IMG/VR virus record: IMGVR_UViG_3300001848_000574
Coordinates: 1 to 31,223 of that record
Origin: a virus
Length of the DNA: 31,223 bases
Direction: 5' to 3' (one strand)
In this document: positions 2,522-27,072 of the stretch, piece after piece
Position numbering within the stretch: position 1 is the first letter of the stretch
Layout: each line of letters starts with the position of its first letter
Notes under the pieces: model-generated
The model's input: only the letters and a program-made list of their open reading frames with translations
Database searches by the model: none
Told to the model about the DNA's origin: nothing
Position numbers and translations under genes: made by a program

Positions 2522-3228
2522 TCTGAACCTCTTATTTTTAACAATCTTAAAAAACTAAAAATTTTTATATACATCCAACCAATATCAAATTCAAACCATT
2601 TTCTACTCAATTTTGAATTGGCAGGATCTAAATGGTGGTTGTTATGTAGTTCTTCTCCACCGATTATAACACCAAATGGGATAATATTGCAACTTTTATC
2701 TTTGGTATCTCCGTTACGGTAACCAAACCAATGACCTAGACCATTTATAACACCAGCTGCCCAAAATGGAATCCATATCATTTGAATCAACCATATTATG
2801 GCGCCAACCCAATCCCAGACGGCAAGGTTGAACATAAGGAGAATAATAATGCCAAGTCTAGATTGAGTACTGTATACGTTTCGCTCAATCCAATCATCAG
2901 GAGTGCCAACGCCATAACTATTAACCATTTGATGATCTTTTGATGCTTCATGGTACAACATAGCTCCTTTAAATAAAACATTCCATATTCCAAAAACATG
3001 TGGACTATGTGGATCACCTCTCATATCACTATAACGGTGATGTTTGCGGTGAATTGCAACCCATTGTTTTGTGACCATACCGGTTGTTAACCACAACCAA
3101 AATCGCATGAAGTGTTCTAATATAGGATTGAATGTTAAACCTTTATGTGCTTGGCCACGGTGCAAATACACCGTGACGCAAATTATTGTTATGTGTGTTG
3201 CAACCAACAAGTATATTAGTTCTGACAT
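2518..3228 (-). CDS. membrane fatty-acid desaturase
   Basis: This 236-residue integral membrane protein has all three histidine boxes of the acyl-lipid/acyl-CoA desaturase family: HRGQAH at 23-28, HRKHH at 60-64 and HNNHH at 195-199, plus the GLGHW histidine at 166 typical of delta-9-type enzymes. Hydrophobic segments lie near residues 4-22, 38-52, 125-150 and 150-168. Such enzymes use a di-iron site and O2 to introduce a double bond into membrane acyl chains. The ATG at 3226-3228 (MSELIYLL) was chosen because GAAGG lies 6 nt upstream; an in-frame upstream start would overlap the end of nrdA. It lies 1 bp after nrdA and overlaps the thioredoxin start by 4 bp, so it is an integral operon member rather than a loose insertion. 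The likely effect is altered host membrane fluidity during infection, which is inference. Confidence 0.9.
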   Translation of the reverse strand: MSELIYLLVATHITIICVTVYLHRGQAHKGLTFNPILEHFMRFWLWLTTGMVTKQWVAIHRKHHRYSDMRGDPHSPHVFGIWNVLFKGAMLYHEASKDHQMVNSYGVGTPDDWIERNVYSTQSRLGIIILLMFNLAVWDWVGAIIWLIQMIWIPFWAAGVINGLGHWFGYRNGDTKDKSCNIIPFGVIIGGEELHNNHHLDPANSKLSRKWFEFDIGWMYIKIFSFLRLLKIRGSE

Positions 3229-3229
3229 T

Positions 3230-5044
3230 TTAACCTTCACAGGCAATACAATCATTGCCTTGAGCGATTTGCGTCATATCCAATTCTTTAATTACTTCAC
3301 GTTCAATTTTCTTAGAAACTTTATCAGCCTTAGCTAATTTTTCACTACGGCAATAATAAAGAGTTTTCAATCCTTTTTTCCATGCCATAAAATGAACAGC
3401 ATGAATATATTTGATGTTACTGTCGGGACGGAAAAATACATTTAATGACTGTGCCTGATCAATATATTGTTGACGGTCTGAGGCGTGTTCAATAACCCAA
3501 CGTTGGTCAATTTCCATAGAAGTTTTAAATACCGCTTTGGTGTTTTCATCCATCCAGTCTAGGTGTTGAACAGAACCATCATTGGCAATAATACTAGACC
3601 AAATTTGCTGATATTCATCTTCACCCTTTGGTGTCAATGGTGAACTATTAGGAGAAAGATAATCCATAATTACCTTGTCAAGATAACGATTCTTGTTCAA
3701 AAATGAGCCAGATAACGTATCCTGGCGATAAGCATTAGCACGATAAGGTTCAATACTAGGGCTAGTGTTTCCCATAATGATAGACGAAGAAGCATTTGGA
3801 GCAATAGCCATAAGATGACTAAAACGTTTACCGTAGCCAACAGCATCTGGAGCTTCACCCCTAATTTTTCCAAGAACCAAGTTAGCATCGTCAAGTCCTT
3901 CTCTAATATTTTTGAACATCGAATTGTTTAAAACTTTGGCCATCACTCCTTCGAAGGCCACACCTTTTCGCTGCAAATAAGCATGGAAACCCAAAGCACC
4001 AATGCCAATAGAACGTTCACGCATAGCAGAATGCTTGGCACGAGCAATAGCGTCAGGAGCATTATTAATAAAATATTCCAACACGTTATCAAGCATTTCT
4101 GCCACGTCCCGTAGAAAAACCATATTATCTTTCCACTCATCATAATACTCCAAATTTAAAGATGACAAACAACACACAGCAGTTCTTTCTTCATTTGTAG
4201 GAAGAATAATTTCAGAACATAAATTTGATTGGTGAATTTTCAAACCTTTTTCTTTTAACCATTGTGGCATTTCACGATTACTGGTGTCGATAAAATGAAT
4301 ATACGGTTCACCCGTGTGCATACGCAAGTCGAGCAACATCTGCCATAACATTTTAGCTGAAACAGTTTCACGAACTTCTCCTGAATTAGGATCAATTAAT
4401 TGCCACGCATCATCAGCGTCTTTATCAATCATACAGCGTTCAATGATTTCCATGAATGAATCTGGAATATTTACGCCATGATGAAGATTCAAACAACGCA
4501 AGTTTGGATCGCCTGTTGGTTTCCTCATCTCAAGGAAGGGAATAATATCAGGATGGGAAATATCAAGATAGGCAGCGTAAGACCCACGGCGAGTGCGGCC
4601 TTGGCGATACGCCAGACTAGAGGCATCGTAAATTTTGAGGTGCGGCATAACACCAGTTGATTTATCATCCGCCGAACGAATACCAAAACCAATCCCGACA
4701 CCGCCACCAAGCATAGAAAGCCAATTAGTTTCACTAAGATTATCAACTAAACCCTCCGCTGTATCTTCAATAAAATTTAAAAAACAAGAAATGGGTAGAC
4801 CACGTTTACTACGACCAAAAGAAAGAATTGGTGTGCTGTATGAAAGCCAATGCTGACTGGCATAATCATATAGTCTTTGAGCATGTGCTTTATCTGTGGA
4901 AAATTGTTTAGAAACAAATGCGAATCTATGTTGAGGACTTTGTTCATCTTCACGCATATAAGATTCTTTTAATCTTTTTATTCCAAGTTCATCAAATAGT
5001 TTATCTCTTTCTAAGTCAATTTTAATACCCAGATATTCTTCCAT
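3230..5044 (-). CDS. nrdA: class Ia ribonucleotide reductase large subunit
   Basis: This is NrdA (R1), the catalytic subunit that reduces ribonucleotides with NrdB. Key residues are visible: Cys87 (PISCFL), the thiyl-radical site NLCSEI with Asn274, Cys276 and Glu278, the partner cysteine at 291 in VCCLSSLNL, the radical-relay tyrosine pair in LYYCRSE, and the C-terminal redox pair CIAC (599-602). At 604 residues it is well short of E. coli NrdA (~760), and no N-terminal ATP-cone is seen: it begins almost directly with the core, so allosteric dATP inhibition is probably lost. A GAGGAG site sits close to the start ATG. It is followed 1 bp later by the desaturase gene. Confidence 0.95.
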   Translation of the reverse strand: MEEYLGIKIDLERDKLFDELGIKRLKESYMREDEQSPQHRFAFVSKQFSTDKAHAQRLYDYASQHWLSYSTPILSFGRSKRGLPISCFLNFIEDTAEGLVDNLSETNWLSMLGGGVGIGFGIRSADDKSTGVMPHLKIYDASSLAYRQGRTRRGSYAAYLDISHPDIIPFLEMRKPTGDPNLRCLNLHHGVNIPDSFMEIIERCMIDKDADDAWQLIDPNSGEVRETVSAKMLWQMLLDLRMHTGEPYIHFIDTSNREMPQWLKEKGLKIHQSNLCSEIILPTNEERTAVCCLSSLNLEYYDEWKDNMVFLRDVAEMLDNVLEYFINNAPDAIARAKHSAMRERSIGIGALGFHAYLQRKGVAFEGVMAKVLNNSMFKNIREGLDDANLVLGKIRGEAPDAVGYGKRFSHLMAIAPNASSSIIMGNTSPSIEPYRANAYRQDTLSGSFLNKNRYLDKVIMDYLSPNSSPLTPKGEDEYQQIWSSIIANDGSVQHLDWMDENTKAVFKTSMEIDQRWVIEHASDRQQYIDQAQSLNVFFRPDSNIKYIHAVHFMAWKKGLKTLYYCRSEKLAKADKVSKKIEREVIKELDMTQIAQGNDCIACEG

Positions 5045-15110: not shown

Positions 15111-16969
15111 TTTTTGCCTGCCTTTTTTCGTTTTATTGTATCGTAGGTATAACCAACTTTATCTTTAGGATTTTCAATCGGTTCTTTATTATCTGCACCG
15201 CTTAGTGTTCCAGCAAATCCAGATTCTTGATCGTTTTGAAATCCATTATACTCATTAATTGTTTTTCTAAACTTACCAAAATTTTTATCTTCTCTGTAAG
15301 TAACATCGCCCAATCCAGACATAGGGTATACTGTTCCCTGTTGGCGAGTGTCAAATTCAGGACCAATTCCAGATTGGTTTCTCAACCTTTGATTAACTGT
15401 AGGAGAGTCAACAAATCTGTTTTTTTTACTCTTTACTTTTTCTTTGTCTTGCTTGAAGTTGCTTTCTTTTGGCTCTGGGAAGATTTTGATCGACCCTTCT
15501 TTGGACTCGGAGTAGGTTCTGAAGGTGTAACTTCCACGCTTGGCGTTTCTGTCCCACTTGATGTTGTCTGCGTTTGGATCTCCTGCTCGATTATCGGCTG
15601 GGATATCTCCTGGACGGTCTGCTGTGGGGCCTGCTCCTGCACGGAGTTTTGGTTCGGAACCGCTGCTGTCCTTTCCGTAAAGTCCAATGGATGGCTTTCT
15701 TCTACTTTCTTTGAGCTTCTGAATAAATCTAGAATCTTTCTTAACATAATTTTGTTCCTCAACAAAAGACTGGTGAATATTATTATTTAGCTTACCGTGA
15801 TTCTCTAACCACAGGTATGCTTCCTCATTTAGAATCTTGATATCAATAAAATCGTTGATACTTTGGTATATATCTGTAATATCTTCTTCTATTTCTTCTA
15901 ACGAACCACTATTATTCAAATCAATAAAGTGTTCAAATTTATTCTGGTATAGTTCTTTGTTTGTTTGTGCTTCTTTCCACTTCTTCTGTCTTATGGATTC
16001 AGCAATCATTTTTGTCAGTTTTTCGTTGCGTTCTTTACTTGTTTCATTTGAAGTTTCAACGAAAACCATTAATGTATCGTATCCTAATTCTTCCAGTTCT
16101 TCCTTGATCCAGAACATCTCATTTTGTTTATCGGCAGGACCATTAATAATCAATGGTTTACGAGTTCTAATTGCTTCTCTACGATAATCAGCCGTTCTTT
16201 CTGTTAATTTTTGCTTATCGGCTAAGTATTCAAAGGCCTGAACCGAATTGATTTCCACAGCTCTGCTTTCGGCAATTGCTTCACGCAAAATAACATCTTT
16301 ACCAGAACCAGGTCCACCAGTAACAAAAATGGCTTTGAACATGCCACGATTGACATTTTCGTGTAGACCCATACCACGACGAACATCATGCATCAATTCT
16401 TTTGCATGTGTATCGGAAACATGATGTGGGACACCTTGACGGAAAGATGAAAAATCTTTGTTTTTAGCATGTTCACGCATTTTAGAACCAGACATGCCCT
16501 CTGTACCTTCTGCATCTGGGTCACGATGGCCAGCAGAATGAACGGTTATCTTTTTGAAATGGTACAATGCACCTTTGTGTGTACCATTATATTGGTGTAG
16601 TTTATCATGGTATTCTTTGACACGGTCTGAACCAGCAACCATATGTAAATGAGTTACACCTTTTTTGTGTAACTCAGCTGCATGGTGCAAAAATGTTGGA
16701 TGCTCTTTTGATGAAGTTGCAAAGTTTGTTCCAGGAGAATAACGCTTTAAGTGTTTGAGTTTTTGTTCTCCACTTAGAGGATTCTTTTTTGTGTCTTGTG
16801 AATGTGAAACAACAACGGAATGCTTTCCGCCGACCTTTTGTGCAACACCTTTAACTTTGTCGATTAGTTTCAAGTGTCCTGTGGTTGGAGGATTCATGCG
16901 GCCAAAGGCCATCACATGATGGTTTTCTTTAGTTTCTTCTTCTCTTAATAACTGTGAAAATGATTTCAT
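15107..16969 (-). CDS. nucleotidyltransferase-P-loop kinase fusion with capsid-targeting-like N-terminus
   Basis: A 620-residue protein with two enzyme domains. Residues 1-10 (MKSFSQLLRE) resemble a T4 capsid targeting sequence with an L-x-E cut site. Residues ~18-200 form a cytidylyltransferase/adenylyltransferase-like domain with GRMNPPTTGH (23-32, holding the T-x-G-H motif) and MSGSKMR (159-165, ISSTxxR-like). Residues ~208-380 form a P-loop kinase domain with GGPGSGKD (218-225). The rest (380-620) is disordered, including an unusually G+C-rich Gly/Pro/Asp/Arg stretch that overlaps a second open frame (15433-15747). Substrates are unknown; an NMN/CTP-type transferase and a nucleoside, polynucleotide or small-molecule kinase are possible. 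It overlaps the ligase-like gene upstream (ATGA), suggesting a joint function. Confidence 0.82.
   Translation of the reverse strand: MKSFSQLLREEETKENHHVMAFGRMNPPTTGHLKLIDKVKGVAQKVGGKHSVVVSHSQDTKKNPLSGEQKLKHLKRYSPGTNFATSSKEHPTFLHHAAELHKKGVTHLHMVAGSDRVKEYHDKLHQYNGTHKGALYHFKKITVHSAGHRDPDAEGTEGMSGSKMREHAKNKDFSSFRQGVPHHVSDTHAKELMHDVRRGMGLHENVNRGMFKAIFVTGGPGSGKDVILREAIAESRAVEINSVQAFEYLADKQKLTERTADYRREAIRTRKPLIINGPADKQNEMFWIKEELEELGYDTLMVFVETSNETSKERNEKLTKMIAESIRQKKWKEAQTNKELYQNKFEHFIDLNNSGSLEEIEEDITDIYQSINDFIDIKILNEEAYLWLENHGKLNNNIHQSFVEEQNYVKKDSRFIQKLKESRRKPSIGLYGKDSSGSEPKLRAGAGPTADRPGDIPADNRAGDPNADNIKWDRNAKRGSYTFRTYSESKEGSIKIFPEPKESNFKQDKEKVKSKKNRFVDSPTVNQRLRNQSGIGPEFDTRQQGTVYPMSGLGDVTYREDKNFGKFRKTINEYNGFQNDQESGFAGTLSGADNKEPIENPKDKVGYTYDTIKRKKAGKK
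15433..15747 (-). CDS. candidate nested gene in alternative frame, 104 aa
   Basis: Inside the nucleotidyltransferase-kinase gene, another minus-strand frame is open for 104 codons from ATG 15745-15747, with GAGGA eight bases before it. The product starts with a possible amphipathic helix (MLRKILDLFRSSKK), has a Gln/Thr/Pro-rich centre (VQEQAPQQTVQEIS, TTSSGTETPSVEV) and ends in a basic Ser/Lys tail (SSKTKKK). G+C is high here: by hand count 31 of 60 bases at 15541-15600 and 36 of 60 at 15601-15660, against 14 of 60 at 15841-15900, as expected if two frames constrain the sequence. It could instead be chance openness in a G+C-rich low-complexity segment. Function unknown. Confidence 0.45.
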   Translation of the reverse strand: MLRKILDLFRSSKKVEESHPLDFTERTAAVPNQNSVQEQAPQQTVQEISQPIIEQEIQTQTTSSGTETPSVEVTPSEPTPSPKKGRSKSSQSQKKATSSKTKKK

Positions 16970-18162
16970 TTACGTACTTTTAACAGATTTATCTTACTGA
17001 ATTCTTTGCGATTTACTAACTTTGTTGGTTCACCTGCATGATGAACAACAAATCCTTCTGGATCTGTTCTTTTTAGTTTACCACCTTCAACTTCTACGTG
17101 ATGTTCTAATCCACCTTCATGTTGATTTAATGTTCTAACTAACACATCTTTTGCTTGTTGTAGATGGTGATGCATCTTTAATAAATTATCATATTGTTGT
17201 TTATTCTTTTTAATATGATCGACATGTAATTTTGCTTCAGCTTGTTTTCTACCTTGAGCAGCAGGAGTCTTTAATTTTTCACCGGCCTTTTTATACTTAT
17301 CCTGTATGAATTTTGATAGACCTTCTGCGTTTGGTTTTTCGTCTGTTCTTACTGTATGGTTAATATATTGTTCTAGATGACCGCCTTCACCACTATGTGG
17401 ACTTACAGCAGAATACATCTTTTGACCATTTTTATCGTGAATTTCTTGTGCGGCTTTAATATGTTTATTGAATTCACCTTGGTCATCAACAGAATAGTGT
17501 ACTTGTTTGGTATCATGGTTTGGTGAAATTCTCCAAACGTCTGGGTGATTTTTGAAGTTGTGTAGGTCTGGATGCGGATCGGCACTCATGGCTTTTGCAG
17601 AATCACCATGATATTGCGTGTGTACCACTACTCCAAGCTTTGCTTTTCTAACCTTATCAGCTTCTTCACCCTTTGCCGTATACTGAATAGTGTTTGGTGT
17701 AAAAGAAACTCCTTGTTTTGTTTCTTTCTTATCATCACCAGAGAACATCAAATCACCTTGATAAACACCAGTTTTTGGTGCGACTTTCTTTAGGTGATTC
17801 AAAGCATCATGTAACTTGGCCATTAAACCTGGTGCGTGACCATGGTTTTTTAATATATCGGCATGTGTATAGTTAACTTTTGGTGTTTTGTTGAAAGCGG
17901 ATTTTGACGCAACAAAAAACTTACCTGTTTCTGGGTGATGACCAAACACGATAGATGGTGAACCATCATATTTCATAGTCAAATGCGAACTGTTGCCACC
18001 AGACTTAATATGCTGGTGTGCTTGTTTTAATGCGGCTACGGCATGGTCGAAACCTTCTGCACCTTTTTGCAAAGGTCTATCTTCCGCATGAGTAATGTGT
18101 TTTAATTTTCCGCCTTCGGCTTCTTCAGCCTGTTCACGGATATATGTGACGAAATCTCTCAT
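16966..18162 (-). CDS. ligase-like covalent nucleotidyltransferase with capsid-targeting-like N-terminus
   Basis: A 398-residue protein starting MRDFVTYIRE, resembling T4 capsid targeting sequences with an I-x-E cut site. The body shows nucleic-acid-ligase-like motifs: motif I KYDGS (Lys64 as the AMP-accepting lysine), a GVYQGDLMF strand (132-140) in the motif III region, LGVVVHTQY (177-184), motif IV EGFVV (369-373) and motif V KLVNRKEF (381-388). The ~185 residues between are an unusual His-rich helical insertion. It may be an RNA or DNA ligase or another adenylating enzyme; a conserved phage family of this kind exists without a defined role. It is the first gene behind a TATAAATA late promoter, so it is made with virion proteins. 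AAAGG lies upstream of the ATG. Confidence 0.75.
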   Translation of the reverse strand: MRDFVTYIREQAEEAEGGKLKHITHAEDRPLQKGAEGFDHAVAALKQAHQHIKSGGNSSHLTMKYDGSPSIVFGHHPETGKFFVASKSAFNKTPKVNYTHADILKNHGHAPGLMAKLHDALNHLKKVAPKTGVYQGDLMFSGDDKKETKQGVSFTPNTIQYTAKGEEADKVRKAKLGVVVHTQYHGDSAKAMSADPHPDLHNFKNHPDVWRISPNHDTKQVHYSVDDQGEFNKHIKAAQEIHDKNGQKMYSAVSPHSGEGGHLEQYINHTVRTDEKPNAEGLSKFIQDKYKKAGEKLKTPAAQGRKQAEAKLHVDHIKKNKQQYDNLLKMHHHLQQAKDVLVRTLNQHEGGLEHHVEVEGGKLKRTDPEGFVVHHAGEPTKLVNRKEFSKINLLKVRK

Positions 18163-18201
18163 TGATACCTTTTGAAATGCAACACACTTTGGTTGCCTGC
18201 G

Positions 18202-18228
18202 GTATATTTATATAAGATTTAAATATAC
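18202..18228. repeat. inverted repeat surrounding late promoter
   Basis: GTATATTTA (18202-18210) and TAAATATAC (18220-18228) are perfect 9-bp inverted arms with a 9-bp spacer. The left arm contains most of the late promoter box. It may be a regulator site or a consequence of the AT-rich palindromic box; a similar arrangement exists at 31038-31055. Confidence 0.55.
18205..18212 (-). promoter_or_regulatory. T4-like late promoter (TATAAATA)
   Basis: A perfect minus-strand TATAAATA, the T4 late promoter box read by gp55-type sigma with gp33 and the sliding clamp. It lies about 43 bp before the ATG of the ligase-like gene (18162), in the 105-bp gap between the glycan genes and the capsid/lysis genes. 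It marks the start of the late transcript. No terminator is recognised for the glycan genes in this gap. Confidence 0.8.
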
Positions 18229-18267: not shown

Positions 18268-18960
18268 TCAATAATATTCAATATTGCCATTTCCAGACAA
18301 CCATCCAAAACAATGAATTTGGTCCAATTCGACCAGATATTCTTTTGGAATATTATGGAAATGTGCATGTTCAGTATCAAAACCTTGTTGAATTACTGGT
18401 ATGTTTTTTCTAATGACTTCAAGGTACGTGTCTATTAATGATGGACACATAGAAAACATTCTGGTGATTAGAAGATCCGATATTTCTTTATTGTGCATCC
18501 AAGTTGGTATTCTTTTCTTAAAAACGAATTTACCAAAAATATCATGTTCTTCTGCATTAAAACCTTCCAACAAAACACTTCTACCAGAAAACTTAAAGAT
18601 TCTTTTAACCGAACTCATCATTTTTGATGTGTCTGGATTCTGTTTAAGTGTAAGTAATGTTTTGTATAACATTAGATTTTCAGCAAGACCTTTTTGACCA
18701 ACTTGAGATAGTTTTAAAACATCAGCATCTTGCGTCATATCAATAAAATAATTTGACTTTTCTGCAACTGAAGTTCTTTCTAAATCTGTCAATGCACGTA
18801 TAGAAGCATCAGTTGTTACGATAATTGCATCAGGAACAATCTTGCGAATTGATCTTAGACCATCTACTGTTTGTTGAAATCTTTCACCGTCACTAAAAGG
18901 ACTTACCAAAGGTTTTAACGCTGAAGTAACGATGAATAGGTTTTTGTCAGGCATAATCAT
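18268..18960 (-). CDS. glycosyltransferase-like protein (hypothetical)
   Basis: A 230-residue alpha/beta protein that opens with a beta strand and loop (NLFIVTSALKPLVSPFSDGERFQQTVDGLRSI; IIVTTDAS), reminiscent of GT-A glycosyltransferases, followed by a helical region (GLAENLMLYKTLLTL) and FKFSGRSVLL, KKRIPTWM and a GFDTEHAHFHNIPKEY segment rich in His. No clear DxD motif is seen, so the call rests on general pattern and gene context. It is the last gene of a seven-gene glycan block. The ATG makes an ATGA overlap with the preceding nucleotidyltransferase-HAD gene. It may transfer a sugar to the activated product made upstream. Confidence 0.55.
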   Translation of the reverse strand: MIMPDKNLFIVTSALKPLVSPFSDGERFQQTVDGLRSIRKIVPDAIIVTTDASIRALTDLERTSVAEKSNYFIDMTQDADVLKLSQVGQKGLAENLMLYKTLLTLKQNPDTSKMMSSVKRIFKFSGRSVLLEGFNAEEHDIFGKFVFKKRIPTWMHNKEISDLLITRMFSMCPSLIDTYLEVIRKNIPVIQQGFDTEHAHFHNIPKEYLVELDQIHCFGWLSGNGNIEYY

Positions 18961-19988
18961 AAAAAATCACTTAATTTATCATCATTTCTATAAAGATTGA
19001 TTGCAACTGCCCTTGGATATGGATTTGATTCATTATAATCATTAATCAGTATGCGTTTTGAATTCTGCAAACCACAAATGAGATTGAAACTCATAAACCC
19101 AAGGTCATACAACATTTGTCTGGTGATACTGGTATATTCGTTTGGTCTTGCTGATGTAAAGATAAATTGAGCACCTTTGGCTTGTAATTCTAACAATCGT
19201 TTGATATTCTTATGCAAAGGAATAGGTTTGCTCTCATAACTATTTGAACCAACACGTGTCTGGTTCTGTATGATTGTTCCATCAATATCACAGAAAATGA
19301 CTGGTTTATCATTATATTCAAACCAATCATTTGCAGTACCAACATCAACATAATCTGTAATATACTTGTTAGTAAAGATTTGTAGATTATTGATGCAACG
19401 ACCAATTACATCTGAAACAAACACTTCCCTATTAGTGTTTAATTCTTCAAAAGCCTGTTTATATAACATTGCTGATGAAAACTTATAACCACCGACACAA
19501 AAGGTGTCAGACACAACTTCTTTCTCTACGATATCCGTTATTATACCATTATTGTTAGCAATTGTAAAGCTTTTTGATGCCAACTTCTTTAGGATTTCAT
19601 GTTGTGAAATTTTTGTAACACAAACGTAGTTGTCGCCTTCGGTAATATCATGCTCAAAAAAACTATCACAATCTTTAATGAATATCTCGGAAGTGTGTAA
19701 TCCTGCGGATTTAATGATTTGATATACTGTGTCGGCCGGACCTCTGGTTGGTTTATCAATAATCACATAATTGATATTGTCAGCCCATTCATGTTGTATC
19801 TGTTCAATAACACCATACTTTTCTTCGTGTTCTTTTAATATGCCTATATGAATTCTAAATCCTTTCTGTCTAAAGGTTCTCAAGGCATTCATCAACATCA
19901 TTTCACCCTTATAATCATATAATAGATATTTGGGCTTCATATTTGGAAATCTGGTAGAAAGACCAGCTGCTGGTACAATTACTTCCAT
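18957..19988 (-). CDS. sugar/alcohol-phosphate nucleotidyltransferase fused to HAD phosphatase
   Basis: A 343-residue two-domain enzyme. Residues 1-~225 are a nucleotidyltransferase with VPAAGLSTRF..KPKYLL (5-23, the NTP-binding G-x-x-x-R and Pro-Lys) and KDCDSFF (105-111, the metal-binding acidic site). Residues ~228-343 are a HAD domain with the nucleophile motif CDIDGTII (233-240: Asp234, Asp236) and FTSARP as motif II. Such enzymes activate a sugar-1-phosphate or phosphocholine-type compound to its NDP/CDP form. The attached phosphatase may trim or supply the substrate. Its overlap with the APH-like kinase suggests that the kinase phosphorylates and this protein activates the same small molecule, as in LicA/LicC; the substrate cannot be read from sequence. 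Confidence 0.82.
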   Translation of the reverse strand: MEVIVPAAGLSTRFPNMKPKYLLYDYKGEMMLMNALRTFRQKGFRIHIGILKEHEEKYGVIEQIQHEWADNINYVIIDKPTRGPADTVYQIIKSAGLHTSEIFIKDCDSFFEHDITEGDNYVCVTKISQHEILKKLASKSFTIANNNGIITDIVEKEVVSDTFCVGGYKFSSAMLYKQAFEELNTNREVFVSDVIGRCINNLQIFTNKYITDYVDVGTANDWFEYNDKPVIFCDIDGTIIQNQTRVGSNSYESKPIPLHKNIKRLLELQAKGAQFIFTSARPNEYTSITRQMLYDLGFMSFNLICGLQNSKRILINDYNESNPYPRAVAINLYRNDDKLSDFL

Positions 19989-20722
19989 AATCTATGAATC
20001 TCTTTCATTAAAAAATTGTAATTATTATCACCACGTTCACAATATTGAATTACTCTCAATAACATTAATATTAATAGTGAATCGTCAATATCTTGTGAAA
20101 ATGAATGTTTGATTTTTGAATTTAATATCTCTAACTTGGTATCTAGTTTAACTTCCGAGTTGCGTAAAAACCATTTACATTCTATGTCTTGTCTTAGTTT
20201 TGCAAGATCGAACACATAAGAATCATATTCTGTCGTGACAGGATCAATCATAACAAAACCTGTGTTTGTGTGCAATATATTTTCTAGTGTAAAATCGCCG
20301 TGATATGTGGATTTAGGAAGAACTTTTGGTAATTTTGCAATTAAATCATACTTTGTGAATGGCATATCTTTTGATTTGTCCAACCAAGCCAATTTATTGT
20401 AGTATGTTTCTGTGTAATCTTTCATTTCAGATTCATTAGAAAAACTATCCATTGTTTCGTTGATGAAATTGAACAACTGATTGATATTATTATGAATCAA
20501 ATAATTCTTCATGTCCAAACCATGGATATATTCCATCAGTAGACTATCATCGATTGATAGGTATACTTTTGGAACATGATATCCCAGTTTTGTTAATTCG
20601 GACATTCTTTCAAGATTGCGTTTTGTGTTACCGATCTTTTCGACACAATAAACACCTTCAATCTCTTTCAAATAAACTTTTGAACCAGAATGACCTTGTA
20701 ACTCTTTAATTATTTTTTCCAT
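19979..20722 (-). CDS. APH/choline-kinase-like small-molecule kinase
   Basis: A 247-residue protein of the aminoglycoside phosphotransferase/choline kinase fold. It has a short N-terminal lobe (GSKVYLKEIEGVYCVEKI), the catalytic loop HGDFTLENIL (141-150: Asp143 as base, Asn148 for metal) and the metal-binding MIDP (158-161) followed by YDSYVFDLAKL. In bacterial glycan loci such kinases phosphorylate choline, ethanolamine or sugars before activation. The gene sits immediately before and overlaps the nucleotidyltransferase-HAD gene by 10 bp, and overlaps the upstream gene by 13 bp. Antibiotic resistance is unlikely given the context. Confidence 0.8.
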   Translation of the reverse strand: MEKIIKELQGHSGSKVYLKEIEGVYCVEKIGNTKRNLERMSELTKLGYHVPKVYLSIDDSLLMEYIHGLDMKNYLIHNNINQLFNFINETMDSFSNESEMKDYTETYYNKLAWLDKSKDMPFTKYDLIAKLPKVLPKSTYHGDFTLENILHTNTGFVMIDPVTTEYDSYVFDLAKLRQDIECKWFLRNSEVKLDTKLEILNSKIKHSFSQDIDDSLLILMLLRVIQYCERGDNNYNFLMKEIHRLWK

Positions 20723-21393
20723 TGTTCTATATCATCACGAATCAAAGAGTGCCATGTTCCATTATATGGTCCTGGTGGAAATGGATTATTCATATTGACA
20801 TAGACGAGATTCTCACCACAAAGACCATGATATCTCAAATTGGCTTGCATCAGATTTTCACCAATAAAGTTTGCACCATTTTCATAGTATTCATCTATAC
20901 GTTCAAAAGTGGACATATACTTTTTCATGTTTTTTTGTGAACTAAATGCAAATTGATCGTTGCCAAAATCTCGTTCTGGTACCATACGACAGTTTGGTAT
21001 ATACAGTTTTGAATTATTCAGTTCTGAAAAAGGTATTACCACATTTAACGCATAGTCGGTCCTTGTAGAAATGACCCAATCATATTGCCCATCAATAAGT
21101 TTCAACACCTCATTCTTTGAGTAAAACATTGAATAGGTGAATCGTGGTGGGTGTTTAACTGCATCCGGTGTTCTGGTGTAAATTGAATCGTAATCACACA
21201 TCAACTTATCTTCAAAAAGATAATCTTTAGGTTTGTATAGTCCATTTACACAAGACACACCTTCAGTTGCGGTTCTTTTCCAACTATGGATATAAACATC
21301 AACATCATAGTGATCCAAAAGATTGCGCTTGAAATATTCGTAACCTTTTTCAAACGATCTGGTTTGACCAGAAAAACATAATGCAATTTTCAT
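20710..21393 (-). CDS. glycosyltransferase-like protein
   Basis: A 227-residue protein beginning KIALCFSGQTRSFEKGYEYF, then a DVDVYIHSWKR strand, features of a family of glycosyltransferase-like proteins found in phages and large viruses. A later YDWVISTRTDYAL (D-x-x-like acidic turn), NDQFAFSS and LMQANLRYHG strengthen the GT-A-like impression. It would transfer a hexose or similar unit to glycan or protein. It lies between the methyltransferase and kinase genes with ATGA and 13-bp overlaps. Donor and acceptor cannot be predicted. Confidence 0.7.
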   Translation of the reverse strand: MKIALCFSGQTRSFEKGYEYFKRNLLDHYDVDVYIHSWKRTATEGVSCVNGLYKPKDYLFEDKLMCDYDSIYTRTPDAVKHPPRFTYSMFYSKNEVLKLIDGQYDWVISTRTDYALNVVIPFSELNNSKLYIPNCRMVPERDFGNDQFAFSSQKNMKKYMSTFERIDEYYENGANFIGENLMQANLRYHGLCGENLVYVNMNNPFPPGPYNGTWHSLIRDDIEQWKK

Positions 21394-21959
21394 TTAATCC
21401 AATACCAAACATCACATTCTGTTGTTAGAATTTCTTTGCCTACTTTAACAGCAAACTCTTTGGCTGCACGATTGACACCTTCGATGGCGGTAAAATCGTG
21501 GCCAGCAAAAATGCCTCCAGGTTTAACCTTGGAATAATAGTTTGCACAGTCAATCGTTAATTGTTCATAGGTGTGTAAACCATCAATAAAGACCAAATCA
21601 TATTCACCATCACCAAATAATCCGGATGCATCATCAGATGTTTTACGAATGTGTGTAAATCTGTTTGAATAACCTTTTAATCTGTCATTCATTCTTTTAC
21701 ACATTTCTTCACGTTCGTTCATCATTCTGCCGTTCCAGTCTTGGTATTCCATATAAGGATCAACAGAAGTTAAATTCAAAGTGGGATTTGAATCTAATAG
21801 AAAATTGGCTGTGTCTCCAATATCACAACCAATTTCAATTGCTCTTGGATTTTTCAAATCTTTAATCAATGCACCTAGACCGTAACCAGAACATTTAAAA
21901 GATTGTTGTTGAATACCAAATGCTTGGTTTTCTGTATTAAAAACAATCACATCATTCAT
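21390..21959 (-). CDS. class I SAM-dependent methyltransferase
   Basis: A 189-residue Rossmann-fold methyltransferase with a SAM-binding motif I (AIEIGCDIGDTANFL, about 40-54), an acidic SVDPYMEYQD end of strand 2, and the DLVFIDGLHTYEQ segment (about 120-132) typical of the Methyltransf_24 type, then KPGGIFAGHDF. Members in glycan loci methylate sugar hydroxyls or amino-sugar precursors. The position between two glycosyltransferase-like genes suggests capping or decoration of a glycan. The gene is only two bases from the upstream stop and overlaps downstream by ATGA. Confidence 0.85.
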   Translation of the reverse strand: MNDVIVFNTENQAFGIQQQSFKCSGYGLGALIKDLKNPRAIEIGCDIGDTANFLLDSNPTLNLTSVDPYMEYQDWNGRMMNEREEMCKRMNDRLKGYSNRFTHIRKTSDDASGLFGDGEYDLVFIDGLHTYEQLTIDCANYYSKVKPGGIFAGHDFTAIEGVNRAAKEFAVKVGKEILTTECDVWYWIK

Positions 21960-21961
21960 GA

Positions 21962-22819
21962 TTAAACCTTGTAGACGAACGAACCACTATCGTCTTGTTG
22001 ACCAAACTTTTCTTGGACGAACTTTTTCCATTCGGGAACACGATCATATTGGTGAACGATTGGATATACATATTGATCGTGTGTTTTTACCAGTCCATCC
22101 TGGAATACAGGTTCAGCCGAAAGCAATTTTGGTCTAAAATCGTTGATCTTTGTAGGATCAGCAACAGTTCCAGCTTCGCAAGCCCAATGATATGAAGCTA
22201 CAATACTATCTTTAAATGGTTGTGTGTTGATTAAAACATTGAATACTGCCTGATCACAAATTGGAATCGGTCTGTTGATGGCGTTTGTGAAAATGTGAAA
22301 AACCATATCCATAACATAATCTGCATGACCACCAAAAGTTCCAACATTATAGATTGGCATATTTTTAAATAAACCATGAACGTATGGTCCATATGATTTG
22401 AAAAGATTTTCGTTACCCCAAGGTTCATCACAATATCTTAGAGCTTCACCTGCAATCACTAGTCTTAAATTTCCTGGTGAATCAAAAGCTGTTTCAAAGA
22501 AATCGAAAGGACTCTTTTGGAAATAAACATCTTTAACATCTGTCACTACAACATAATGATAGTTTGCCCAAAAGTTTCTTAGATATTCATAGATATAAAG
22601 AAAACGATATACGTGAATAGGAATATTATCGTTTTTGGCCATAGGAAAAACAATTACTCCTTGTTCTTCCAACCACTTAGTAGTTTCTTCGGTAGTTTCA
22701 CCCGCACACAATACAACATCGCAATTTTCACCGCCATGTTCTTTCGCAGATAAAACCCAAGGTTTTAACTCGTTAATACCATATCTTGTAAAACCACCAA
22801 TAATTAAATTTTTATCCAT
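21962..22819 (-). CDS. glycosyltransferase-like protein, GT-A type
   Basis: A 285-residue protein of GT-A fold appearance: an opening strand with LIIGGFTRYGI, then CDVVLCAGE, the probable DxD metal motif in VVVTDVKDVYF (about 90-100), YNVGTFGGH and a catalytic region CDQAVFNVLI, typical of glycosyltransferases that check acceptor position with a D-Q. Its C-terminus contains HQYDRVPEW. It overlaps the family 2 glycosyltransferase by 16 bp. Likely adds one sugar of the phage-directed glycan; the donor is unknown. Confidence 0.75.
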   Translation of the reverse strand: MDKNLIIGGFTRYGINELKPWVLSAKEHGGENCDVVLCAGETTEETTKWLEEQGVIVFPMAKNDNIPIHVYRFLYIYEYLRNFWANYHYVVVTDVKDVYFQKSPFDFFETAFDSPGNLRLVIAGEALRYCDEPWGNENLFKSYGPYVHGLFKNMPIYNVGTFGGHADYVMDMVFHIFTNAINRPIPICDQAVFNVLINTQPFKDSIVASYHWACEAGTVADPTKINDFRPKLLSAEPVFQDGLVKTHDQYVYPIVHQYDRVPEWKKFVQEKFGQQDDSGSFVYKV

Positions 22820-23514
22820 GGGAACTCTCCATTATATTTTTGTTTCATAATTTCATTGCCTTTTAAAAAGAATTCTGCATTAACAGAACCCGGATTTCCA
22901 TCAACACGATAGTTAACTGTGTATTTACCAGTACAATCAAATTTAGGAAAATGTTGAGATAACACAGAAAGAAAAACTCTGTCTTGGCCCCAACCGCCAT
23001 GCCATACACTTGCTAATTTTATCGCAACCGATGTTTTTATGCAATAGCAATTAGTATCTATGTGATTTACTCCATGATACGTTTGCCATTTACCAAGAGA
23101 TTCGCAATCATCGTTACAAATATAATTGCCTTCTTTGTCACATATCTTACGGAGTGAATAGGACCAATCCAGGTCTTTCTCTTTCATGATTTCGATACAT
23201 TGTTCTACGTGATCTGGTTCGAACCAACAGTCTTGATCCAGGTAAAGAACATAGTCGGTATTGATTAGGTGTGTAAATGCTGCATAAACACGATGGCCAT
23301 AGAATCCGTTGGCACCGACATTAATTGGTAGAAAACACTTTTCTAATTTTTTTCTTGATAGAAAATTATCGGTAATAATTCTCGTTTTTGAATGTGTTTG
23401 AATACCATCAGCTACAACATAGCACATGGTATCATATGTTTGATTCATCACACCTTTTACAGCATCTTCCAACTCTGGAGAACCCGTGGTTGGTATAATC
23501 ACAGTTGCACTCAT
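22804..23514 (-). CDS. glycosyltransferase family 2
   Basis: A 236-residue GT2-type protein: SATVIIPTTGSPELEDAVKGVMNQTY at the N-terminus is the classic nucleotide-sugar-binding start, and YLDQDCWFEPDHVE (about 95-108) contains the D-x-D motif. A Cys-rich stretch (KICDKEGNYICNDDCESLG) may bind a metal. GGWGQDRVF resembles the acceptor/catalytic E/D-D motif. It begins the seven-gene glycan block after the PD-(D/E)XK gene. It probably adds the first sugar of a glycan to a lipid carrier, host lipopolysaccharide or a virion protein. Confidence 0.88.
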   Translation of the reverse strand: MSATVIIPTTGSPELEDAVKGVMNQTYDTMCYVVADGIQTHSKTRIITDNFLSRKKLEKCFLPINVGANGFYGHRVYAAFTHLINTDYVLYLDQDCWFEPDHVEQCIEIMKEKDLDWSYSLRKICDKEGNYICNDDCESLGKWQTYHGVNHIDTNCYCIKTSVAIKLASVWHGGWGQDRVFLSVLSQHFPKFDCTGKYTVNYRVDGNPGSVNAEFFLKGNEIMKQKYNGEFPWIKI

Positions 23515-23535: not shown

Positions 23536-24282
23536 TTATACGAAACAACCCAAATTCATTTGATTCTTAATTATATTAACCGATTTTCCATCCACCGGTG
23601 CAATATTAAACGGAGATTTTTTAGAAGAAGGAATAGAAAACTGCATTTCAAAGGTAAATTGATAGTTGTCGCTGCCCTTATATTGTACACGAATACGATA
23701 TATTGCTTTTGCTGATTGTCCAAAACGAGGAACATCTTTAAGTTTCAAAGGGTTTGAACTTCCCATCAAATAAAATCCATGTGTTCCAACGTTTACATAG
23801 TATGTATCTTTCTTGTTATAGTATTCTTCAATTTTAGAAGCAGAAATTTCACCTTTAATATCAGGAAAAGTATCTCTGTCTCTTTCGTATATTTGTTTTT
23901 TAGACATACCTTTTGTTTGTAAAGGTAATAAATCGTCCTTCTCTCTTTTCAGAGGAATACTTTTCCAGTTTTTCTTAAGCAAATCATACACACCAATTTC
24001 TTCCGCAAGATTTTTGATGAACATTTTTTCTGCATCATCTTCTTGAATTTTATTGAAAGACCATGGGTTTCTTTTATTTTTCCCGTCATACTTTAACACA
24101 AGAGAACCTGCTGATGCAGCTGAAATTTTCAATTCGCAACCTGATTTCTTATTGTTATGTTCCAACATCAAATCAGGCTGGTCATGGCCTGCGCCAGCAG
24201 GAACAAAAGATTTTGGAACCAAACCTAATGGTTTTAAAACTTTTGCTGCGTTCTTTTCGTATTCGAAACCTTGTTGTGCCAT
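23536..24282 (-). CDS. PD-(D/E)XK nuclease-like protein
   Basis: A 248-residue protein with a candidate PD-(D/E)XK nuclease core: Asp37 in HDQPDLML and Glu50-x-Lys52 in GCELKIS, spaced 13 residues apart as in many restriction and repair nucleases, with an upstream helix (GFEYEKNAAKVLK) containing a Glu. The C-terminal half has no recognised domain (PVDGKSVN, FEMQFSI). A GATAAATA late-like box lies ~20 bp upstream, suggesting late expression, perhaps a host-DNA or recombination-intermediate nuclease. The identity of the active site is inferred from the motif alone. Confidence 0.6.
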   Translation of the reverse strand: MAQQGFEYEKNAAKVLKPLGLVPKSFVPAGAGHDQPDLMLEHNNKKSGCELKISAASAGSLVLKYDGKNKRNPWSFNKIQEDDAEKMFIKNLAEEIGVYDLLKKNWKSIPLKREKDDLLPLQTKGMSKKQIYERDRDTFPDIKGEISASKIEEYYNKKDTYYVNVGTHGFYLMGSSNPLKLKDVPRFGQSAKAIYRIRVQYKGSDNYQFTFEMQFSIPSSKKSPFNIAPVDGKSVNIIKNQMNLGCFV

Positions 24283-24301
24283 TATTGACCTTAAATAGAA
24301 A

Positions 24302-24309
24302 TATTTATC
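24302..24309 (-). promoter_or_regulatory. candidate late promoter (GATAAATA)
   Basis: A minus-strand GATAAATA, matching the NATAAATA late box, about 20 bp upstream of the PD-(D/E)XK gene and overlapping the end of the DUF4338 gene. The leader would be only about 10 nt but includes the AAGG site. If active it would place the nuclease and the glycan genes under late control. A short match in AT-rich DNA, so uncertain. Confidence 0.35.
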
Positions 24310-25411
24310 TGATGATTTGAATATCTTTTCCTGAAGTCCATACTTCTAATTCAGTTCTCAATCGACCTTCATTATATAAAGTTTCATACCGATTGCAAGC
24401 TTTGTTTCGCCACCACTCAATCAAATTCTTCAAATGATGTTTTTCATAATTTTCACCAGGTGATAATTTATCAGTTTTACAATTAATATAATCTTTCATA
24501 TTTTTAAAACCATAGTCAGAATGGTAATATCGCTTCTGTTCTGTCAACCCTTTAGCCTTCTCAATCGTTGATATGAATGTCCGTCCTTCATCAGTATCCT
24601 TTAGGGCTGATTTAGTTAGAGCTATAATTCTCATTGTAATCTTAAGCTTTTTACTTGAGGCTTCCGGATCGATAATCTCACCAACTTTACTTTCCACAAA
24701 GTTTTTTAGATTCTCATAGGGTTTACCATGCATCATGGGAACAAAGTCACTATCGGTTAATCCATTATAACGTATATATGGTTTCATACCATCATATTGT
24801 GATACAGTTTTTGATGATCCATATAGACTTGTTGTTTCAAACAGACACAGATTCATTCCATATTTCTTATTCACAATCTCTCTGACTTCATGTGAGGTAC
24901 AGATACCTGCAAGTAACTTTCCGCCAAGATAATTGAAACCGAAAGGTTGTGATGGAACAATCACAAAACCCATCAAAGCAGAATCGTTGAATCGTTTGGA
25001 CCATTCAGGTTGTTGTGTAAAAACCTGACCAAGTAATTCATTACGAGGTTTCATATTGATAACAGGAGAACCAAGGCGGATAAATCCAACCCATTTATCT
25101 GTATTGGTTTCTTTTACACCCAATCTTATTTGCCGGCCAACAGGTGAAATGTTGATGTGTGAAGAGGTAATATTCAGTAGTGTTTCCCATTCTGATTGTG
25201 CCATACCAACAACTTCAAAATTCATATCTTTTGGATGCATTTTGAAATCAGAAAACAATTCATCTTCCAATGGAAATAAAGGATTAGTTGGCAACTCAGA
25301 AAGAGAAGCCAACTTTTGGTCTCTCATGTATTCATCGATGCGATTAAAATTACCAAAGTAATCTTCAAACACCTTTGCACAATATAGTGCATCATCAAAC
25401 TTTAAATCCAT
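24305..25411 (-). CDS. DUF4338 (Druantia DruA-like) domain protein
   Basis: A 368-residue protein (ATG 25409-25411; a TTG one codon earlier is less likely). Residues ~108-215 match the DUF4338 pattern: VGFIRLGSPVI, RF..MGFVIVP, FNYLGGKLLAGICTSHEVREIVNKKYG, and FETTSLYG followed by a YDG. DUF4338 is the domain of DruA in the Druantia anti-phage system, and also occurs alone in mobile elements and phages. The molecular function is unknown. The C-terminal ~150 residues hold a basic tail with KHHLKNLIEWWRNKACNRYE. It overlaps the helicase gene by 17 bp, so it belongs to the replication operon, which suggests a DNA-related role. Confidence 0.72.
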   Translation of the reverse strand: MDLKFDDALYCAKVFEDYFGNFNRIDEYMRDQKLASLSELPTNPLFPLEDELFSDFKMHPKDMNFEVVGMAQSEWETLLNITSSHINISPVGRQIRLGVKETNTDKWVGFIRLGSPVINMKPRNELLGQVFTQQPEWSKRFNDSALMGFVIVPSQPFGFNYLGGKLLAGICTSHEVREIVNKKYGMNLCLFETTSLYGSSKTVSQYDGMKPYIRYNGLTDSDFVPMMHGKPYENLKNFVESKVGEIIDPEASSKKLKITMRIIALTKSALKDTDEGRTFISTIEKAKGLTEQKRYYHSDYGFKNMKDYINCKTDKLSPGENYEKHHLKNLIEWWRNKACNRYETLYNEGRLRTELEVWTSGKDIQIIR

Positions 25412-26789
25412 CAAAGCTCTTCTTCATTGGTTTTTCACGATTGCCAAAAGTATTCAGGGGTTTATCTGTAATGCCAGCATCAGCCAGACCATCTTGTGCT
25501 GATTGTTCAACATCATATAGTTTCATTTTTGATCTGTCAACACCTATGGTAAATCTCTTATACATTGTTGGATCGGAGTAACGATTCTTCAACTGTTTGA
25601 CCATAATTTGGCCAAGTTCTTCTAGTTCTTCGGATGTAATCAACGCAAACATCAAGTCGGCGGTAGCTGGCAAACCAAAAGACTCACTTGTGTCCTCAAG
25701 TCCGGGATCGGAACTTGTATAACCTGACCGAGTTGTCTGTGTAGCAGAAACAATTGGAACTCCGAATTCAACGGCAAGACCTCGCAATTCTTCGGCAATT
25801 GCCTTGACATAGGTATAAGAGTTGACATTAGCTCCGGCTTTAATACGAGAACTACAACAAATATTGAGGTAATCCACAAAGATAATATCAGGAACAAAGC
25901 TTTTCTTGAGATTGAGTTCATTTAACAAAGTCCTAAAGTGTGTAACAGATGCGGCCGCAGTTGGATATTCTTTGATAATAAGTTTACCCACAGTCTTTGA
26001 ACGAACCTTTTCTATCTTTCTATCATACATTTCTTTTGGTAGACTAACCAAATCATCTACTGTTACGTTCAGCAAGTTTGCATCTATGCGTTCAGCAATT
26101 TTTTCTTCAGCCATTTCCATAGTGATATACAGTACATTTTTGCCTTGCACCATACAACCAGCGGCAACGTGACACATAAAGAGAGACTTACCAACACCGG
26201 TACCAGCAAGAGCGATATTAAGAGTTTTAATAGGAAGACCGCCTTTTGTAATTTTATTGAAGTATTCCAAATCAAAAGGAATTCGTTCTTCTTTTCTATG
26301 ATAAAATTCAAAACGTTCATCACTATTCTCCAAATAATCGTGGCCTACAGAACTATCAAAACTTACTGCGAGGGCATCGGAAAGTAACTTAGGTATGGAC
26401 CCCTTATCTTGGGTTTTGTCCTTCCCATCGAGGATTGAAATAGACCCCAATACTGCATTGTATATGGCCTTCTCTTGACAGAATTTTTCGGTTTTATCAA
26501 CCAACCAGTCAATCTTGGATTGTTCATCCTTAAATTTGACAATCTCCTGTAAACAAGTTTCGCACTTCTCCACTTCATCATCTGAGAGATTTCGCCTTTC
26601 TTTGACGGCCAATTCAAGTGCTTCAATCGTTGGTGTAGAATTATAGTCCTCAACGAATTTGGAAATTTCATTGAAGATTGTTCTATCGGTCCTATCCGTG
26701 AAGTAGTCGGCTTTAATAAAAGGGAGTACTTTGCGTAAGTATTCATCATTGTAAATTAGATTCTTCAGAATCATTTGTTCCAGTTTCAT
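25395..26789 (-). CDS. 41: replicative DNA helicase (T4 gp41 family)
   Basis: A 464-residue DnaB-like hexameric helicase. The N-terminal domain (1-140) is helical. The RecA-like C-terminal domain has Walker A AGTGVGKS (195-202), Walker B in DIIFVDYLNIC, and downstream TTRSGYTSS and ATADLMFAL motifs characteristic of gp41. It unwinds the fork 5' to 3' and recruits the gp61 primase. The ATG at 26787-26789 was chosen; an in-frame TTG precedes it. It overlaps the small protein upstream by 44 bp and the DUF4338 gene downstream by 17 bp. Length is close to T4 gp41 (475 aa). Confidence 0.94.
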   Translation of the reverse strand: MKLEQMILKNLIYNDEYLRKVLPFIKADYFTDRTDRTIFNEISKFVEDYNSTPTIEALELAVKERRNLSDDEVEKCETCLQEIVKFKDEQSKIDWLVDKTEKFCQEKAIYNAVLGSISILDGKDKTQDKGSIPKLLSDALAVSFDSSVGHDYLENSDERFEFYHRKEERIPFDLEYFNKITKGGLPIKTLNIALAGTGVGKSLFMCHVAAGCMVQGKNVLYITMEMAEEKIAERIDANLLNVTVDDLVSLPKEMYDRKIEKVRSKTVGKLIIKEYPTAAASVTHFRTLLNELNLKKSFVPDIIFVDYLNICCSSRIKAGANVNSYTYVKAIAEELRGLAVEFGVPIVSATQTTRSGYTSSDPGLEDTSESFGLPATADLMFALITSEELEELGQIMVKQLKNRYSDPTMYKRFTIGVDRSKMKLYDVEQSAQDGLADAGITDKPLNTFGNREKPMKKSFDGFKV

Positions 26790-27072
26790 CAATTATGTCC
26801 TGTTCCATATTTTGTGACATTAGTTCGACCAATAGGTCACCAATGTAGTTTTTAAAATCACCGTCTTTTTCTAACTTACCTGGTTTCTTAACTGGTGATT
26901 CTATCACATCATAAGCAAAAAGTAAATAGACCTGTTCATTTTCTTCTTTGAATTTAACTTTACCATATTTGAATACGGTATCTTTATATGGTCCATCTAA
27001 AAACCTAATGTGAACTGCCGCACCATCTTCTTTTGGATAAATGAAGCAGTAATCTAAACCTTCAATCATCAT
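26746..27072 (-). CDS. conserved small phage protein between uvsX and helicase
   Basis: A 108-residue protein, mixed alpha/beta: MMIEGLDYCFIYPKEDGAAVHIRFLDGPYKDTVFKYGKVKF.. suggests a small beta domain, with an acidic C-terminal tail (DIIDETGTNDSEES). Genes of this kind commonly separate uvsX from gp41 in aquatic T4-like phages; in T4 itself gene 40 lies in this place, but I see no similarity. The start overlaps the uvsX stop (ATGA), and the gene overlaps the helicase by 44 bp. Its role could be in replication or recombination; unknown. Confidence 0.72.
   Translation of the reverse strand: MMIEGLDYCFIYPKEDGAAVHIRFLDGPYKDTVFKYGKVKFKEENEQVYLLFAYDVIESPVKKPGKLEKDGDFKNYIGDLLVELMSQNMEQDIIDETGTNDSEESNLQ

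What the first reader, a model, noticed from the sequence alone, without database searches (positions are those of the whole stretch)
18268..23514. Seven-gene phage glycan block
A family 2 glycosyltransferase, three more glycosyltransferase-like proteins, a methyltransferase, a kinase and a nucleotidyltransferase-HAD enzyme are co-directional and overlapping, between replication and virion genes. This is enough for making and attaching a modified sugar. Possible targets: virion proteins (for instance the Ig-like protein), host lipopolysaccharide to block superinfection, or DNA bases.
Basis: inference. Interest (0 to 1): 0.62.

Follow-up and report, generated by a model that had tools for sequence, protein, structure and literature searches.

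The report
Phage operon for host surface sugars
A freshwater T4-like virus of bacteria carries a compact, strictly conserved set of seven sugar-making and sugar-attaching genes, most likely used early in infection to alter the sugar coat of the infected bacterium, although no sugar product has been shown.

Summary
The block is real and exactly where stated: seven minus-strand genes, 18268-23514, packed end to end. Sugar-related assignments hold: GT2 (w31), SAM methyltransferase (w29), APH-fold kinase (w27) and a nucleotidyltransferase-HAD fusion (w26) by sequence; w28 and w25 are GT-A folds by AlphaFold2 plus PDB comparison; w30 is GT-like only by weak matches. It is not hypervariable cargo. 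In 46 environmental contigs spanning it the order is invariant (36 have a second w28-family gene, 5 lack w29), dN/dS is 0.05-0.27, and 71 of 78 contigs fetched by neighbouring replication genes carry it. It ends the replication cluster: a T4-type late promoter (TATAAATA) follows w25 in 71 of 73 relatives, and in phage Melnitz that promoter directly follows the helicase, so the block was inserted before the early/late border. Homologues of the kinase + nucleotidyltransferase-HAD pair lie in a chromosomal fucose/O-antigen-type locus of a Burkholderiaceae genome, the host family hinted at by the phages' own tmRNA; relatives of parts of the block occur in cyanophage LPS clusters. No dCMP-hydroxymethylase-type gene was found in nine relatives. 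Best reading: a lineage-core, early-side operon remodelling the host surface glycan. Product, acceptor and purpose are unproven.

The parts
22804..23514 (-). w31: family 2 glycosyltransferase (236 aa), first gene of the block
   Evidence: PF00535 E 5.6e-9; invariant DQD and GQDR in 20 homologues; profile matches a glycosyltransferase structure, 5tze, E 5e-4
21962..22819 (-). w30: probable GT-A-type glycosyltransferase (285 aa)
   Evidence: phrog_1579 glycosyltransferase E 0.0013; conserved TDVKDV-type acidic motif in 30 homologues; marginal PF25342/PF03407 in a few homologues; weak, fold not predicted
21390..21959 (-). w29: SAM-dependent methyltransferase, Methyltransf_24 type (189 aa)
   Evidence: PF13578 E 7.4e-16; invariant EIGxDxGxT and FIDGLHxY motifs; absent in 5 of 46 relatives
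20710..21393 (-). w28: GT-A-fold glycosyltransferase (227 aa); most relatives have a second family member just before it
   Evidence: phrog_13607 E 2.7e-27; AF2 pLDDT 91, Foldseek best 4ayj E 2.8e-6, VIA Z 12.4
19979..20722 (-). w27: small-molecule kinase of the APH/RIO fold (247 aa)
   Evidence: PF01636 E 2.2e-6; invariant HGDxTxxN and ID motifs in 37 homologues; hhalign 96% with the kinase of a bacterial polysaccharide locus
18957..19988 (-). w26: nucleotidyltransferase (N-terminal) fused to HAD phosphatase-like domain (C-terminal), 343 aa
   Evidence: PF00483 and PF08282; both catalytic motif sets invariant in 36 homologues; 4evw NDP-sugar pyrophosphorylase E 7.6e-8 and 4xrp HAD E 1.7e-4
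18268..18960 (-). w25: GT-A-fold glycosyltransferase (230 aa), last gene of the block; no family-library hit
   Evidence: AF2 pLDDT 95.1; Foldseek glycogenin E 1.6e-7; VIA Z 13.7 to 1foa and 13.6 to metal-independent 4ayj
18205..18212 (-). T4-type late promoter TATAAATA, 55 nt after the w25 stop: border of the block
   Evidence: only minus-strand match in the window; present at the same border in 71 of 73 relatives, 0.004 expected per tested window
16966..18162 (-). w24: DUF6267 protein, first gene after the late promoter (not part of the block)
   Evidence: PF19782 E 1.6e-98
23536..26792 (-). upstream context: w32 (function unknown), w33 (DruA-like, phrog_19197), w34 (DnaB-type helicase)

Best explanation
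The block is one transcriptional segment at the end of the phage's replication (early/middle) cluster. It encodes a small self-contained glycan pathway. Inferred steps: the APH-fold kinase (w27) phosphorylates a sugar or sugar-like alcohol, the HAD domain of w26 removes a phosphate from an intermediate, and the nucleotidyltransferase domain of w26 makes the activated NDP-sugar. Three to four cytoplasmic glycosyltransferases (w31, w30, w28, w25) add sugars in sequence, and w29 methylates the product. The most likely acceptor is the host's LPS core, O-antigen or capsule intermediate on the cytoplasmic face, so that the envelope of the infected cell is changed before late genes are made; the likely benefit is blocking superinfection or re-adsorption of progeny. 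Shown: gene content, folds of w25 and w28, conserved catalytic motifs, fixed order, selection, the late-promoter border, polysaccharide-locus homologues. Inferred: time of expression, order of reactions, substrates, acceptor and benefit.
For: Families and folds; invariant catalytic motifs; fixed order in 46 contigs and presence in 71 of 78 contigs anchored on w34/w33, the negatives lacking w33 or ending too soon; dN/dS 0.05-0.27; late promoter directly after w25 in 71/73, and directly after the helicase in Melnitz, which has no block there; a Burkholderiaceae genome with kinase (294 aa) + NTase-HAD (351 aa, 34% identical to w26) next to ManC-like, GMD and Fcl-like genes, a chain-length-like protein and a GT25; other family genomes with w26-like NTases in polysaccharide and capsule loci; relatives in cyanophage sugar clusters. 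The 174.5-kb relative also has NDP-sugar dehydratase/epimerase genes. No block protein has a predicted membrane helix.
Against: No product, acceptor or phenotype is known. No flippase, ligase or lipid-linked sugar transferase is in the block, so it must plug into host machinery. Virion-protein glycosylation by enzymes made early is equally compatible with the timing. The bacterial homologues are distant (34% for w26, less for w27), and homologues of w25, w28, w29, w30 and w31 were not found in the bacterial loci examined. Host assignment rests on tmRNA type only, which can mislead (Melnitz carries an alphaproteobacterial-type tmRNA, PMC9004378). The HAD could act on something other than a sugar phosphate.
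Confidence: 0.58

Rival explanations
1. The enzymes make a glycan that is attached to virion proteins (capsid, fibres or Ig-like decoration proteins), not to the host surface.
For: All block proteins are predicted soluble; four GTs and a methyltransferase could build a short protein-linked glycan; the block lies just upstream of the late region.
Against: Closest bacterial relatives of the activation pair lie in surface-polysaccharide loci; relatives of w26 and w28 lie in cyanophage clusters annotated as sugar/capsule genes; the block is on the early side of the late promoter.
Confidence: 0.2
2. The block modifies phage DNA bases with a sugar, as in T4.
For: Phage-borne GTs can act on DNA (general knowledge); a methyltransferase is present; w29 matches PHROG models labelled DNA methyltransferase, though its Pfam match is a general small-molecule type.
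Against: No PF00303 hydroxymethylase/thymidylate-synthase relative in nine long relatives with a positive control; only ThyX is seen in the window; no T4 DNA-glucosyltransferase Pfam hit. A Tet_JBP search was empty but without a ringing control, so that route is untested.
Confidence: 0.06
3. Non-functional or dispensable cargo ('stuffer DNA'), the possibility raised for cyanophage LPS clusters in PMC3037559.
For: No phenotype is known for such clusters.
Against: Invariant order in 46 contigs, purifying selection, intact catalytic motifs, near-fixed presence.
Confidence: 0.04
4. The kinase/nucleotidyltransferase pair activates an amino- or polyol-alcohol (choline- or glycerol-like) rather than a sugar, and the block adds a phospho-substituent to the host glycan (LicA/LicC-like chemistry).
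For: w27 has the APH fold shared with choline kinases (fold relation from general knowledge) and w26 resembles general NTP transferases.
Against: No LicD-type phosphotransferase matched in the block; four GT-type proteins suggest NDP-sugar donors; the closest solved relative is called an NDP-sugar pyrophosphorylase.
Confidence: 0.12

Closest known systems
LPS/sugar gene clusters of T4-like cyanophages (Bellamy, SynMITS9220M01, S-PRM1, B23; PMC3037559)
   Same: GTs plus sugar-activation genes in a T4-like phage; share relatives of the w26 NTase fusion (about 25% identity, part-length) and of w28.
   Different: Those clusters lie near tRNA, plastocyanin or hli genes; here a fixed minimal operon sits between replication genes and a late promoter and is near-universal in its lineage.
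Glycosyltransferase/LPS genes of pelagimyophages (PMC7029224)
   Same: T4-like aquatic phages with GTs thought to alter the host O-chain.
   Different: There the genes lie often in the hypervariable host-recognition cluster or in groups of two or three, and freshwater (Fonsibacter) members are said to lack LPS genes.
Chromosomal kinase + NTase-HAD pair of a Burkholderiaceae genome (G359, L128)
   Same: Same two-gene order and domain architecture; w26 34% identical.
   Different: Part of a larger locus with GDP-fucose, chain-length and polymerase-like genes; none of the phage's GTs there.
Methylophilales phage Melnitz (PMC9004378)
   Same: Related replication cluster, DUF6267 gene and a TATAAATA border.
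   Different: No glycan block between helicase and DUF6267: comparator for the empty site.
Bacterial NDP-heptose route (kinase, HAD phosphatase, nucleotidyltransferase), from general knowledge
   Same: Same three kinds of activity in a row.
   Different: Kinase fold differs (APH here, GHMP/PfkB there) and no isomerase is seen in the block: an analogy only.

Membership tests
Phage-borne surface-polysaccharide (LPS) gene cluster of T4-like phages | Contiguous GTs with sugar-activation genes in a T4-like phage | tested here: met
Phage-borne surface-polysaccharide (LPS) gene cluster of T4-like phages | Gene families shared with known cyanophage clusters | tested here: met
   w26 and/or w28 relatives in Bellamy, SynMITS9220M01 and virus AG-345-E15; identities about 24-33%
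Phage-borne surface-polysaccharide (LPS) gene cluster of T4-like phages | Variable content and location in hypervariable regions (usual but not obligatory) | tested here: not met
   Order invariant in 46 contigs, fixed locus
Phage-borne surface-polysaccharide (LPS) gene cluster of T4-like phages | Host surface glycan altered during infection | not testable with these tools
   Needs infection and LPS analysis
GtrABC-type seroconversion module | Membrane flippase, lipid-linked glucosyltransferase and polytopic GT | tested here: not met
   No block protein has a membrane-helix-like segment (max KD19 1.08); no Gtr families
T4-type DNA glucosylation | dCMP hydroxymethylase (PF00303 superfamily) | tested here: not met
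   0 of 9 relatives, control rings in 9 of 14; records may be incomplete
T4-type DNA glucosylation | alpha/beta DNA-glucosyltransferase homologue | tested here: not met
   No such Pfam hit among the seven proteins at E 0.1
NDP-heptose pathway (HddA/GmhB/HddC or HldE) | GHMP- or PfkB-type sugar kinase | tested here: not met
   w27 matches APH/RIO-type kinases only
LicABC/LicD phosphocholine decoration | LicD-type phosphotransferase in the cluster | tested here: not met
   No LicD Pfam hit
GT-A glycosyltransferases (w25, w28) | GT-A fold | tested here: met
   Foldseek E 1.6e-7 and 2.8e-6; VIA Z 13.7 and 12.4
GT-A glycosyltransferases (w30) | GT-A fold | tested here: inconclusive
   Only phrog_1579 E 0.0013 and marginal Pfam hits; fold not predicted

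The most novel reading that the evidence does not exclude
A whole lineage of freshwater T4-like phages, probably infecting Burkholderiales, depends on a core, early-expressed glycan operon with its own sugar-activation pathway to rebuild the host envelope during lytic infection, unlike the variable LPS clusters known so far.
Probability: 0.4. Interest if true: 0.62.

Novelty: new variant of a known kind. Interest (0 to 1): 0.45.

Why it matters
Whether LPS-type genes of T4-like phages are functional or mere filler has been left open (PMC3037559). A minimal, invariant seven-gene set under purifying selection, placed before a late promoter, is a far better test case than the large variable clusters. 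It may show how strictly lytic freshwater phages re-coat their hosts, and it offers a small enzyme set for an unidentified activated sugar.

Tried and rejected
Bacterial relatives of w26 by degenerate-pattern scan of genome contigs: none; the profile search of 398 Burkholderiaceae genomes later found one full-length relative. w30 profile in the same genomes: one partial match only. PDB profile searches with w25, w28 and w30 gave nothing usable by sequence, with w29 nothing, hence the fold route. w28 against a WavE-type protein of a capsule locus: no similarity by hhalign, although both show an RTD motif by eye. w30 against w31 profiles: none. The bacterial kinase against PDB: nothing. Sigma-70-like promoter scan: no more sites than in shuffles, so no early promoter is claimed. 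Tet_JBP search empty without a working control, so no conclusion. Literature on phage glycan operons with these enzymes: only the cyanophage and pelagimyophage reports were useful.
Full report
What is there. The window is a 31-kb IMG/VR fragment of a T4-like phage; all main genes are on the minus strand. Transcription runs from w38 and DNA polymerase (w37) through UvsX (w36) and a DnaB-type helicase (w34) to w33 (DruA-like) and w32, then the block, then w24 (DUF6267) and w23 (cytidylyltransferase/ATPase), and later primase, ThyX, MazG-like protein, ribonucleotide reductase and a fatty acid desaturase. The DNA polymerase is about 50% identical to those of cyanophages and marine single-cell phages.

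What the proteins are. w31 is a GT2 (PF00535, E 5.6e-9), w29 a Methyltransf_24 protein, w27 an APH-type kinase, w26 an NTP transferase fused to a HAD domain. In alignments of 20-42 environmental homologues the catalytic motifs are conserved: the pyrophosphorylase signature and the HAD motifs FxDIDGT and ILINDYN in w26, HGDxTxxN and ID in w27, SAM motifs in w29, DQD in w31, TDVKDV in w30. The w26 profile hits an NDP-sugar pyrophosphorylase structure (4evw, E 7.6e-8) and the HAD part of Pnkp1. w25 matches no family library. Its AlphaFold2 model (pLDDT 95) is a GT-A glycosyltransferase: glycogenin by Foldseek, VIA Z 13.7 over 182 residues at 3.1 A to 1foa and 13.6 to a metal-independent GT6. w28 (pLDDT 91) gives the same answer.

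It is a lineage-core operon. A scan with w26 gave 80 contigs. In 46 that span w31 to w25 the order is always w31-w30-(w29)-w28(s)-w27-w26-w25; 36 have two w28-family genes, 5 have the window's arrangement with one, and 5 lack w29. The extra gene is a diverged w28 relative (hhalign 96%). Some of the 46 are near-identical populations, so they are not independent. Because that scan selects for w26, I also fetched contigs by the helicase and by w33: of 78 with at least 2.5 kb downstream, 71 carry block genes; six of the seven negatives lack w33 (three of them run from the helicase through other genes to DUF6267) and the seventh ends before the block could appear. Nei-Gojobori dN/dS against four relatives is 0.05-0.27 for block genes, against 0.03-0.09 for helicase and UvsX. 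Some synonymous distances are near saturation, so these are rough, but neutral drift is excluded.

Where it sits in the transcription programme. TATAAATA, the late promoter of T4 and near-identical to that of cyanophages (PMC2984593), occurs once on the coding strand of the window, at 18205-18212, in the 105-nt gap after w25. One match alone would mean nothing: the count in the window is no more than chance. But 71 of 73 relatives have it just after the w25 stop, mostly 55-57 nt after it, against 0.004 expected per tested window. In the 174.5-kb relative it occurs only six times; three sites are intergenic by my ORF calls, one of these before a prohead-core-like gene, and a fourth is the one after w25, which my ORF call for w24 overlapped because it took an upstream start. 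In phage Melnitz the same motif follows the helicase stop directly, then a gene of unknown function, then DUF6267, without the block. So the block was added on the early side of the early/late border, and the border was kept. Time of expression is inferred, not measured.

What it is related to. In Burkholderiaceae genomes a full-length w26 relative was found in one of 398 (E 3e-94). It is preceded by an APH kinase that aligns with the w27 profile, and the pair sits between GDP-mannose dehydratase/fucose-synthase-like genes and a set with a GT25, a chain-length-like and a polymerase-like protein (the last two and the ManC-like protein are named by eye). Other family members have w26-like NTases in polysaccharide or ABC-type capsule loci, one next to a WavE protein. 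The cyanophages Bellamy and SynMITS9220M01 have relatives of w26 and w28 in clusters with epimerases, GTs and sugar kinase genes. The single-cell virus AG-345-E15 has w26, w27 and w28 relatives together. The 174.5-kb relative also encodes an NDP-sugar dehydratase, an epimerase, a hexapeptide-repeat protein and cytidylyltransferases outside the block.

Host. Four relatives of 157-177 kb each carry a betaproteobacterial-type tmRNA above the Rfam threshold. In one the predicted tag ANDEKFALAA, used as a degenerate pattern, matched only Cupriavidus among GTDB genomes. This suggests Burkholderiales hosts. It is a hint only: Melnitz carries an alphaproteobacterial-type tmRNA (PMC9004378). That the phages live in fresh water is my reading of the sources and of the host hint, not a tool result.

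How it probably works. Kinase, HAD and nucleotidyltransferase are the three activities needed to turn a phosphorylated sugar into an NDP-sugar, as in the NDP-heptose route, with a different kinase fold. The GTs and methyltransferase would build and finish a short glycan. All proteins look soluble, so they would work on the cytoplasmic face and rely on host export. Surface remodelling is favoured by the polysaccharide-locus relatives and early-side position; virion glycosylation remains open; DNA modification is unlikely. Purpose (superinfection block, preventing re-adsorption, or escape from something else) is a guess.

Novelty. Sugar clusters in T4-like phages are known (PMC3037559, PMC7029224). 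New here, as far as the searches reach, are the minimal composition, the invariance across a lineage, and the fixed place ahead of a conserved late promoter.

Noticed in passing
window 18162-18204 (-), leader of w24: Just after the conserved late promoter the leader of w24 holds a small hairpin, GGCAACCAAAGTGTGTTGC, nearly invariant in relatives, with a matched change on both sides in 12 of them (GACAAC...GTTGT); its core occurs once in the 174.5-kb relative. Possibly a regulatory leader of the late transcript.
   Followed up: partly
L096:17532-17895 (G001 169532-169895); also G002, G003, G004: Relatives carry a permuted betaproteobacterial-type tmRNA (RF01850, RF04321), predicted tag ANDEKFALAA in G001, plus 28 tRNAs in G001.
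   Followed up: partly
window 24305-25414 (-): w33 resembles the DruA protein of the Druantia defence system (PF14236 E 4e-10, PADLOC DruA E 1e-8) but sits in the phage replication cluster; its presence tracks the glycan block.
   Followed up: partly
window 2518-3255 (-): Fatty acid desaturase (PF00487 E 2.5e-13) between ribonucleotide reductase subunit genes; a desaturase is also reported in freshwater pelagimyophages (PMC7029224).
   Followed up: no
L093:12404-13093 (G001): Most relatives carry a second, diverged w28-family gene that the window and its closest kin lack, suggesting loss of one glycosyltransferase and a different glycan.
   Followed up: partly
L093:1148-5429 (G001): The DNA polymerase gene of the 174.5-kb relative is split into two frames separated by about 1.6 kb of other ORFs, looking like an intron or homing insertion.
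   Followed up: no
L099, L102, L104, L106 (Cupriavidus pinatubonensis HN-2): Several copies of the same tmRNA tag pattern on the chromosomes and a plasmid of one strain, perhaps traces of islands integrated at tmRNA genes.
   Followed up: no
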